Part shown: one piece after another, positions 30,194 through 38,221 of the stretch
Layout: each line of letters starts with the position of its first letter
How positions within the stretch are numbered: position 1 is the stretch's first letter
Notes under the pieces: generated by a model
Database searches by the model: none
Told to the model about the DNA's origin: nothing
What the model saw: the letters and a program-made list of their open reading frames with translations, nothing else
Translations under genes and position numbers: made by a program
Source: Planctomycetales bacterium
GTDB taxonomy: Bacteria; Planctomycetota; Phycisphaerae; Sedimentisphaerales; Anaerohalosphaeraceae
Assembly (NCBI GenBank): GCA_022615575.1
Contig: JAKEGM010000063.1
Coordinates: forward strand, 1-38,221
Length of the DNA stretch: 38,221 nucleotides
Direction of reading: 5' to 3'

Positions 30194-30304
30194 CCGAAGT
30201 GTCCCGCTTCGGGAAATGGGACGCAGGCATCTTGCCTGCTGCTGGGAGCGCGACCGTCCGGGTCGCATGGGATTCCGTTTGCGGGCGAAACGCCCGCGTT
30301 CCCA
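30194..30304. repeat. Cluster of four short palindromes in the gap after the cytochrome gene
   Basis: CCGAAG..CTTCGG (30194-30212), GCAGGCA-TCT-TGCCTGC (30223-30239), GCGACC..GGTCGC (30250-30266), GCGGGCG-AAA-CGCCCGC (30281-30297). Confidence 0.7.
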
Positions 30305-36944: not shown

Positions 36945-36953
36945 CCAATGTGG

Positions 36954-37372
36954 CGCCAAGCATCCTGCTTCGGATGTTAGTACCCCCGGCTTCCCGCCGG
37001 CACGTTTAATGGGAACGCGGGCGTCCCGCCCGCATTATGGTGCCAAGCGTCTCACTCCCTGTCATGCCGGACTTATTCCGGCATCCAGAAAAGCCCATCG
37101 GGCTTAGACAACAATAGCCCCAGGTTGAACAGACCAACCTGTCCGAACGGTCATTCCGAGCGCAGTCGAGGAATCTGATTATTCAGCAAAATTCCACCCG
37201 GCCTGAAAAGCCAATGTAACTTAGCCCAGGGCAGCGCCCTGGGTACTCAAATCCCAAAACACATTGAACGCCCTGTAAGGGCAACATAAAATCCCCTCTA
37301 TCTCATTTGTCCTGTTTATCCCATACCCCCGTGTTCGTCCGTGCCTGTCCGTGTGTTTGTCCATACCCGTCC
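36954..37372. repeat. Mosaic of many different short palindromic / dispersed-type sequence modules
   Basis: CCGGC..GCCGG, GCGGGCG-TCC-CGCCCGC, GCCGGA..TCCGGC, AAGCCC-ATC-GGGCTT, CAGGTTG-N7-CAACCTG, ATTCC..GGAAT, CCCAGGGC-AGC-GCCCTGGG, GCCCT-GTA-AGGGC, then GTCCGTGCCTGTCCGTGTG tract. Confidence 0.8.
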
Positions 37373-37374
37373 GA

Positions 37375-38221
37375 CTATTCTTCAAACTCAAAAGCCATCT
37401 GCTTGCTTGCTTTTTGAACCTTTGGCCCTTCCCGCATTTCTTCCGGCACATCCGGCAGTTCGCTGGCGCTGAATAACTCGCTTTCAAGTACTTTTTCAAA
37501 CAGCTCAATCTGTTTCGGATAGCCGTCTATTGTCTTTTCCAGCACCCACAATAGTTCCAGCAGTTCGCGCGTAAAGGCGTGTGTCCAGTGTTTGGGACGA
37601 ATCTCATCCAGCGGCGACGATTTACGCCCCGACCGTTGTTTCATCCGATACCCCAGCCACGACTGTGCCACCTTCAGCCCGGATACTTCAAACTCCAAAA
37701 CCTCTTGGCTGACCGGCCCGAAAGTCCCATCGCCCACAAATAGCGTTTGAGTGGCTTCATCGTAATGGTATTCTTCCGGATAGTTGTCCTCTGCATCCGA
37801 AACCGCCTTTTTACATTTGACGCTGCCCGCAGGCGTTTTGCCTTTGGCACGCCCGCCCCCCGTCATCCGCTGGCCGTAGGTATGCAGCCAGATTAAGCCC
37901 TTGCCGAATTCAGACAATTCAAAAAACAGCTTTCCGTCTTTGGTCAGCGGCACATGAATCTGGCGATTGGTCAGTTCCTTTTCAAAACGCCGGGTGTACT
38001 CCGGCTGCGCCAGAATCCCATACAGATACCCCGCAAAATCCTCCGGCGATACCTTTTTGCTGTATGTATCCTTTAACAACTCAAGCAGCCCCGGCAAAAG
38101 ATTCGGCTCTGTTGTTTCTGCATTGCGGTAAAGAGGCAACACCGCTTTTGCGCCATAAGAACCCCGGAAATAATCAAGGTCAGGAATATCCGAACATGCA
38201 ACAACTGCAGGGCCATACCCC
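37375..38221 (-). CDS. Type ISP restriction-modification enzyme, C-terminal portion (N-terminus beyond window edge)
   Basis: Frame stays open past the track start: GYGPAVVACSDIPDLDYFRGSYGAKAVLPLYRN...YLYGILAQPEYTRRFEKEL...GLKVAQSWLGYRMKQRSGRKSSPLDEIRPKHWT...LLELLWVLEKTIDGYPKQIELFEKVL, typical of Type ISP C-terminal domains. Confidence 0.83.
   Translation of the reverse strand, partial: GYGPAVVACSDIPDLDYFRGSYGAKAVLPLYRNAETTEPNLLPGLLELLKDTYSKKVSPEDFAGYLYGILAQPEYTRRFEKELTNRQIHVPLTKDGKLFFELSEFGKGLIWLHTYGQRMTGGGRAKGKTPAGSVKCKKAVSDAEDNYPEEYHYDEATQTLFVGDGTFGPVSQEVLEFEVSGLKVAQSWLGYRMKQRSGRKSSPLDEIRPKHWTHAFTRELLELLWVLEKTIDGYPKQIELFEKVLESELFSASELPDVPEEMREGPKVQKASKQMAFEFEE

What the first reader, a model, noticed from the sequence alone, without database searches (positions are those of the whole stretch)
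36954..37372. Convergent intergenic gap built from at least eight unrelated short palindromic modules
Between MTAP (+) and the Type ISP gene (-), ~420 bp of non-coding DNA is almost fully tiled by different palindromes, each present once here: CCGGCTTCCCGCCGG, GCGGGCGTCCCGCCCGC, GTCATGCCGGACTTATTCCGGCATCCAG, AAGCCCATCGGGCTT, CAGGTTGAACAGACCAACCTG, TCATTCCGAGCGCAGTCGAGGAATCTG, CCCAGGGCAGCGCCCTGGG, GCCCTGTAAGGGC, and a GTCCGTGCCTGTCCGTGTG tract. Several look like short dispersed sequences I recall from intergenic DNA of many unrelated bacteria. A site collecting many families side by side suggests a nested landing zone or composite REP-like element. No mobilising gene is visible.
Basis: partly seen in the sequence, partly recalled or inferred. 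Interest (0 to 1): 0.72.

Follow-up and report, generated by a model that had tools for sequence, protein, structure and literature searches.

The report
Gap tiled by mobile hairpin repeats
The gap between these two genes is a pile-up of a few families of short mobile DNA hairpins, and one of them, catalogued until now as a small RNA (Acido-Lenti-1), appears to be the end structure of a single-strand DNA transposase system.

Summary
All nine strings are at the stated places and hairpin cover far exceeds shuffles, but perfect hairpins cover 22-33% of the gap rather than nearly all of it, and the "eight unrelated palindromes" reduce to about three dispersed families. (1) M1/M2 are REP-like hairpins; this genome's only detected Y1/RAYT-like gene is flanked by a perfect inverted pair of M2-type hairpins. 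(2) M7, M8 and an unlisted hairpin before M7 form one three-hairpin unit, 37200-37282, containing Rfam RF01687 (Acido-Lenti-1, filed as sRNA), with about 16 copies in 1.1 Mb of this genome. In relatives the same unit brackets a Y1/HUH transposase gene as facing pairs: 28 of 30 loci on at least one side, 24 on both, about 20-26 nt from the gene. Genome-level co-occurrence is strong (36/41 vs 0/39; 27/51 vs 1/47) and linkage recurs in Bacteroidota. The transposase carries the motif of TnpA subclass 1.2, reported to lack REP sequences. (3) M3/M6 are GTCAT-type repeats; M6 abuts Acido-Lenti-1 units at several sites. M5 and M9 stayed single-copy. Likeliest reading: REP units mobilised in trans by Y1 transposases accumulated in a permissive convergent gap. 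Transposition itself is not shown.

The parts
36945..37374 (.). the whole convergent intergenic gap
   Evidence: between ORF ending 36944 (+) and ORF 37375-38220 (-)
36960..36977 (+).
   Evidence: 4 related copies in 1.1 Mb, 0 in the reversed control; sits next to an M2-type hairpin in L082 and near an Acido-Lenti-1 unit in L085
36986..37000 (+). M1: hairpin CCGGC-TTCCC-GCCGG, same build as M2
   Evidence: weak relatives in L036 and L062; count alone not above chance
37010..37034 (+). M2: GGGA-tagged REP TGGGAACGCGGGCGTCCCGCCCGCA
   Evidence: 11 copies of the core within 2 mismatches in 1.1 Mb against 0 in random sequence; the same hairpin type flanks the genome's RAYT-like gene as a 27-nt perfect inverted pair
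37061..37088 (+). M3: GTCAT-type palindrome GTCATGCCGG...CCGGCATCCAG
   Evidence: second copy L095:4948
37091..37141 (+). M4+M5: possible diverged Acido-Lenti-1-type unit (hairpin, TAG at 37115-37117, hairpin)
   Evidence: AAGCCC...TAGCCCC stretch 26 of 31 identical to a unit in same-genus locus L335, but model R1 does not detect it
37150..37196 (+). M6: GTCAT-type element GTCATTCCGAGCGCAGTCGAGGAATCT with its CAG...ATTCCA tail
   Evidence: 6 copies in this genome and copies in 40 of 98 genomes, 0 for the reversed pattern; tail conserved
37200..37212 (+). H1, first hairpin of the Acido-Lenti-1 unit
   Evidence: R1 alignment; within the RF01687 match 37199-37243
37200..37282 (+). complete three-hairpin unit H1-TAG-H2-spacer-H3 (RF01687 on the minus strand plus H3)
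   Evidence: R1 42 bits, E 2.6e-9 over 1.1 Mb; RF01687 28.6 bits, below the gathering score of 37
37225..37243 (+). M7 = H2, CCCAGGGC-AGC-GCCCTGGG after TAG 37222-37224
37270..37282 (+). M8 = H3, GCCCT-GTA-AGGGC; in bracketed elements this hairpin lies next to the transposase gene
37337..37355 (+). M9: GTCCGTG repeat tract, unassigned
   Evidence: only copy in 1.1 Mb; longer CCGTGTCCATCCGTG-like tracts lie beside M6 copies in a same-genus genome (L344, L345)

Best explanation
The gap is a mosaic of short hairpin elements from at least three families (GGGA-tagged REPs; Acido-Lenti-1 three-hairpin units; GTCAT-type repeats) that were copied or moved into it in trans and tolerated because it lies between the 3' ends of two convergent genes. 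For the first two families the likely mobilisers are Y1/HUH single-strand DNA transposases. M1/M2 match the hairpins that flank the genome's RAYT-like gene. The unit 37200-37282 is the end structure of a second Y1 transposase (TnpA with Y-x3-Q-x2-HH): in relatives it occurs as facing copies immediately before and after tnpA (H1-H2-H3-tnpA-H3'-H2'-H1'), as gene-less facing pairs, and as solitary or tandem units like the one here. Inferred mechanism, by analogy with IS608/ISDra2 TnpA and E. coli TnpA-REP: the transposase binds the hairpins when the strand is single-stranded, cuts next to them and joins them elsewhere. Shown: sequence, copy number, linkage, orientation, co-occurrence and stem matching. 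Inferred: cutting, movement, order of arrival, absence of further function.
For: M2: 11 copies vs 0 expected; RAYT-like gene with 27-nt perfect inverted M2-type flanks; Bacteroidales kin of that gene flanked by analogous GGA/GGG-tagged hairpins. Acido-Lenti-1 unit: gap copy 42 bits, 16 full-length matches at E<0.01 in 1.1 Mb; RF01687 in 58 of 199 and 51 of 98 genomes, up to 44 copies each. Linkage to tnpA: RF01687, a model independent of this work, lies within 300 nt of 24/30 tnpA genes, 17 on both sides; within 200 nt upstream hits are minus strand 17:3 and downstream hits plus strand 26:1. With R1 28/30, both sides facing 24/30, median 26 and 21 nt. Co-occurrence 36/41 vs 0/39 (Fisher 1e-17) and, in an unselected set, 27/51 vs 1/47 (4e-9). 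Both ends of one element carry the same 8-nt stem in 15/17 cases; dispersed copies match their own genome's tnpA-end stems 28/74 vs 5.1 in shuffles, p<0.0005. tnpA copies within a genome are divergent, median 42% identity, so it behaves like a REPtron rather than a spreading IS. Replicated in Bacteroidota: 12/22 tnpA loci, 6 on both sides. tnpA resembles ISHp608 and other solved Y1 transposases (E ~1e-14).
Against: No tnpA of the second kind was found in this genome's assembly (89.6% complete), so its own units may be relics. The gap copy is degenerate by Rfam's standard (28.6 bits). M4+M5 is not recognised by the model; M5 and M9 are single-copy. No Y1 gene lies near M6 in 30 sampled loci. 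No empty site was seen. A first stem-matching test on 5 genomes was not significant (p 0.12). Ten of 22 Bacteroidota tnpA loci lack R1 matches; by eye several carry other hairpin arrays.
Confidence: 0.8

Rival explanations
1. Acido-Lenti-1 is, as Rfam files it, a small RNA (or an RNA-level regulator at 3' ends) and its nearness to transposase genes is secondary, for instance regulation of tnpA by an RNA hairpin.
For: Three helices with strong two-sided changes (13 of 18 pairs), compatible with RNA; Rfam type 'Gene; sRNA'; a 2026 paper still suggests a regulatory ncRNA (PMC13298647).
Against: It sits on both sides of tnpA in facing orientation, including upstream on the opposite strand; both ends share the same stem; it is dispersed in tens of copies and as facing pairs without a gene; tandem arrays occur (L170). 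The covariation count is biased because units were chosen by a stem-requiring search.
Confidence: 0.1
2. The whole bracketed unit is an ordinary insertion sequence of the IS200/IS605 family and the gap copy is a truncated IS end.
For: NCBIfam names the protein IS200/IS605 family transposase over its cut-off; facing end structures at fixed distance.
Against: tnpA copies in one genome are 29-86% identical, median 42%, while hairpin units outnumber tnpA many-fold, and gene-less pairs are common.
Confidence: 0.15
3. The modules are functional 3'-end hairpins (terminators, mRNA stabilisers) kept by selection, and the family resemblances are convergent.
For: Position between convergent genes; hairpins are GC-rich; copies are rarely in divergent gaps (1 of 16 and 1 of 17 against 96 of 392 background gaps).
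Against: No intrinsic-terminator-like site in the gap; shared sequence outside the stems (TAG, spacer, H3) and exact dispersed words argue for common origin.
Confidence: 0.1
4. The gap is a special landing zone in which one element's end is the target of another (for instance Acido-Lenti-1 units inserting beside GTCAT-type elements). This can be true together with the best explanation.
For: M6-type elements directly abut H1 of a unit in this gap, L086, L050, L094 and in same-genus L332 and L335, and M3 abuts M4; a hairpin of M3 type is nested in M6 loops in L343, L345, L346.
Against: Most units have no such neighbour and most M6 copies lack a unit; no empty sites; the excess was not tested formally.
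Confidence: 0.3

Closest known systems
REP/BIME/REPIN elements with RAYT (TnpA-REP) genes (PMC3116915, PMC3733652, PMC6006769)
   Same: short intergenic hairpins in many copies, single units, facing pairs and arrays, linked to a Y1/HUH gene flanked by the same hairpins
   Different: the Acido-Lenti-1 unit is three hairpins of about 83 nt with a conserved TAG before the second; its partner carries Y-x3-Q-x2-HH, not the Y---NP of RAYTs; M2 carries GGGA/GGAG, not GTAG or CGTC
Rfam RF01687 Acido-Lenti-1 (PMC2864571)
   Same: hairpins H2 and H1 of the unit are this model; the own-genome copy in L036 scores 45.6 bits, over the gathering score
   Different: Rfam files it as sRNA; here it is dispersed DNA bracketing transposase genes, and the third hairpin is not in the model
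TnpA-Y1 subclass 1.2 (PMC6006769)
   Same: Y---Q--HH motif, WQ, about 150 aa, low identity among copies of one genome
   Different: the paper reports no REP association and no typical IS ends for it; here it is flanked by hairpin triples on both sides
TIRYT/TIRtron elements (PMC3733652)
   Same: Y1 genes flanked by inverted structures that also occur as a dispersed family in a few genomes
   Different: PMC6006769 mentions TIRYTs under its subclass 2.1, and those TIRs are not described as H1-TAG-H2-H3 triples
GTAG/CGTC-tagged REP superfamilies (PMC3733652)
   Same: M3/M6 recall CGTC repeats: short palindromes in several phyla with no known dedicated transposase
   Different: tag here is GGTC or TGTC before ATTCC/ATGCC; membership not established

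Membership tests
REP element with RAYT (for M2) | dispersed short hairpin, multi-copy in the genome | tested here: met
   11 copies within 2 mismatches in 1.1 Mb vs 0
REP element with RAYT (for M2) | same hairpin flanks a Y1 gene in the genome | tested here: met
   27-nt perfect inverted pair around L031:92-667
REP element with RAYT (for M2) | GT[AG]G or CGTC tetranucleotide at the hairpin foot | tested here: not met
   foot reads GGGA/GGAG/GGAA
REP element with RAYT (for M2) | partner protein is a REP-associated tyrosine transposase | tested here: inconclusive
   NF047646 58 bits, cut-off 80; PF01797 43.9 bits, over its cut-off of 23
Rfam RF01687 Acido-Lenti-1 (gap copy) | score over the gathering threshold of 37 bits | tested here: not met
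   28.6 bits, E 2.4e-4; other own-genome copies reach 43.9-45.7 bits
Three-hairpin unit defined here (model R1) | full-length match H1-TAG-H2-H3 | tested here: met
   42 bits, E 2.6e-9 over 1.1 Mb; the gap copy was not in the model's alignment A4
TnpA-Y1 subclass 1.2 | Y-x3-Q-x2-HH, WQ and HUH motifs | tested here: met
   alignment A2 invariant columns; compared with the motif table of PMC6006769
TnpA-Y1 subclass 1.2 | position in that paper's protein clustering or tree | not tested
   the paper's sequences were not held
REPtron (tnpA flanked by its dispersed hairpins, tnpA itself not proliferating) | facing hairpins on both sides of tnpA | tested here: met
   24/30 loci with R1, 17/30 with Rfam
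REPtron (tnpA flanked by its dispersed hairpins, tnpA itself not proliferating) | tnpA copies in one genome not near-identical | tested here: met
   median 42%, maximum 86%
REPtron (tnpA flanked by its dispersed hairpins, tnpA itself not proliferating) | transposase binds and cuts the hairpins | not testable with these tools
   needs biochemistry
CGTC-tagged REP (for M3/M6) | CGTC tag at one end | tested here: not met
   the gap copies read GGTC and TGTC

The most novel reading that the evidence does not exclude
Acido-Lenti-1 is not an RNA gene but the three-hairpin recognition structure of a previously partnerless class of Y1 single-strand transposases (subclass 1.2), forming a new REPtron class spread over at least two phyla and able to leave gene-less pairs and solo units by the tens per genome, with GTCAT-type repeats as preferred neighbours or targets.
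Probability: 0.7. Interest if true: 0.7.

Novelty: new variant of a known kind. Interest (0 to 1): 0.6.

Why it matters
It gives a probable identity to an Rfam 'sRNA' family whose function is unknown and which is still being read as regulatory RNA downstream of genes (PMC13298647). It gives TnpA subclass 1.2, described as lacking REP sequences (PMC6006769), a concrete DNA substrate that can be tested in vitro. It also warns that hairpin-rich convergent gaps can be layered mobile-element debris rather than regulatory landscapes.

Tried and rejected
Orthologous gap in relatives: MTAP found in 81 of 98 genomes, but in the loci read no relative has the Type ISP gene after it, so no presence/absence comparison. 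M1, M4 and M8 as bare words are not above chance. M4+M5 as an Acido-Lenti-1 unit: suggestive by eye, not found by R1, left open. M6 near a Y1 gene: none in 30 loci with two profiles. Intrinsic terminators: none. The first stem-matching test missed many tnpA genes because of a narrow motif and was not significant; repeated with an HMM. Strict absence of G-U pairs was not used as an argument because the unit finder demanded Watson-Crick stems. Group II introns near the units (a memory of a note on this RNA family): none in 20 loci.

Full report
Observation. Perfect hairpins cover 33% (stems of 5 or more) or 22% (6 or more) of the gap, which no shuffle of 500 reached. The gap is therefore really hairpin-rich, but not almost fully tiled. 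Among 78 noncoding stretches of 200 bp or more in a 1.1 Mb sample, taken by a crude ORF mask, only 2 reach its value.

How many families. In the sampled 1.1 Mb of the genome, M2 has 11 copies within two mismatches and M7 has 10 within three, against none in random sequence; M3 has a second copy. M6 has 6 strict copies genome-wide and occurs in 40 of 98 relatives, with zero for the reversed pattern. M5 and M9 had no second copy in the sample.

Family 1, M1/M2. The genome has one detected Y1-type gene (PF01797). It is bracketed by ACTGGGAGCGCGGGCGTCTCGCCCGCA, a 27-nt perfect inverted pair, which differs from M2 by one base in the loop and one in the foot. Kin of the protein in Bacteroidales (41-51% identity) are flanked by hairpins of the same build with GGAG, GGAA or similar feet. 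The foot is neither GTAG nor CGTC, so M2 is REP-like with its transposase but outside the two named superfamilies of PMC3733652. The protein scores under the curated cut-off of the REP-transposase model (58 of 80 bits). For M1 the link rests on shape only.

Family 2, M7/M8. Rfam places RF01687, Acido-Lenti-1, on 37199-37243 (28.6 bits, under the gathering score) and over threshold on another own copy. Across the phylum sample 58 of 199 genomes carry it, often with tens of copies, often as facing pairs. Comparing copies showed a third hairpin outside the Rfam model, giving the unit H1, about 10 nt, TAG, H2, about 25 nt, H3. A model of this unit (R1) finds the gap copy at 42 bits (E 2.6e-9) and 16 full-length matches at E<0.01 in the sample.

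The partner gene. Several of the first Acido-Lenti-1 loci held the same small ORF, a Y1 transposase with HUH, WQ and Y-x3-Q-x2-HH motifs, assigned to the IS200 family by NCBIfam and similar to solved Y1 transposases such as ISHp608 TnpA. The motif is the published signature of TnpA subclass 1.2, for which no REP and no typical IS ends were reported (PMC6006769).

Linkage tests. (a) Co-occurrence: among 80 genomes, 36 of 41 with RF01687 and 0 of 39 without carry the gene. The 41 were picked towards genomes with more hits, so this set is somewhat selected. In the unselected relatives set the figures are 27 of 51 and 1 of 47; Fisher p 1e-17 and 4e-9, without correction for shared descent. (b) Position: with Rfam's own model 24 of 30 tnpA genes have a unit within 300 nt, 17 on both sides, with strong orientation bias. 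With R1, 28 of 30 have one, 24 on both sides facing, median 26 nt and 21 nt from the aligned gene ends; some of these loci contributed rows to R1, so the Rfam figure is the independent one. (c) Bacteroidota, not used for the model: 12 of 22 loci, 6 on both sides; by eye, several others carry arrays of other hairpins. (d) Both ends of one element share the same 8-nt stem in 15 of 17 cases, and dispersed copies match the stems of their own genome's tnpA 28 times in 74 against 5.1 after shuffling genomes (an earlier, smaller attempt was not significant). (e) tnpA copies inside one genome are about as divergent as between genomes (median identity 42% and 39%), so the gene is not spreading as an IS while its hairpins are numerous.

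This genome. It has 9 RF01687 hits and no such tnpA in its 89.6% complete assembly, whereas five same-genus genomes have 20-43 hits with 1-8 tnpA genes. Its units may be relics, or the gene may lie in the missing part.

Family 3, M3/M6. These GTCAT-type repeats have no Y1 gene nearby in 30 loci, which recalls the statement that CGTC repeats lack a dedicated transposase (PMC3733652). It abuts H1 of an Acido-Lenti-1 unit here, in L086, L050 and L094, and in two same-genus loci. M3 abuts M4 in the same way, and M4+M5 looks like a diverged unit, but R1 does not confirm it. The gap may thus be two consecutive [GTCAT element + Acido-Lenti-1 unit] composites behind a pair of GGGA-type REPs; that is an inference.

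Context. Copies are mostly intergenic by a crude ORF caller and rarely in divergent gaps, as reported for REPs. No terminator-like site was found. Other mixed sites exist: L045:8686-9000, L044:18369-18599, L094:4225-4493, L050:2376-2516. The simplest account is that this gap is a permissive place that several independent hairpin families reached.

What is not shown. I rate the gap itself as a new example of a known kind of mosaic, and the Acido-Lenti-1/TnpA pairing as a new variant of the REPtron.

Noticed in passing
window 30222-30304: Cluster of three GGGA-tagged M2-type hairpins in alternating orientation.
   Followed up: partly
L343, L345, L346 (same-genus genome G005): A hairpin of M3 type lies nested inside the loop of the M6-type element.
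   Followed up: no
L050:2376-2516, L332: A further dispersed-looking word, TGTCCTGAGC..AGCCGAA.GG, sits inside the tail of an M6 element between CAG and ATTCC.
   Followed up: no
L366 (G300), L170 (G239): Acido-Lenti-1 units in regular tandem arrays beside tnpA, spaced about 66-70 bp.
   Followed up: partly
L363, L365, L367, L368, L373, L379 (Bacteroidota): The same tnpA type is flanked by arrays of a single short hairpin (for example ATTCCCCGTAGGGGATTTCG; AAGCTGCGTAGCTGC) instead of the triple.
   Followed up: no
G005, same genus: 92 M6-type copies in one genome against 6 here; the mobiliser was not looked for there beyond one locus.
   Followed up: no
L031:92-667: The genome's RAYT-like protein ends YIQNNG, lacking the NP of the usual Y motif, with its stop codon close to the flanking hairpin.
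   Followed up: no
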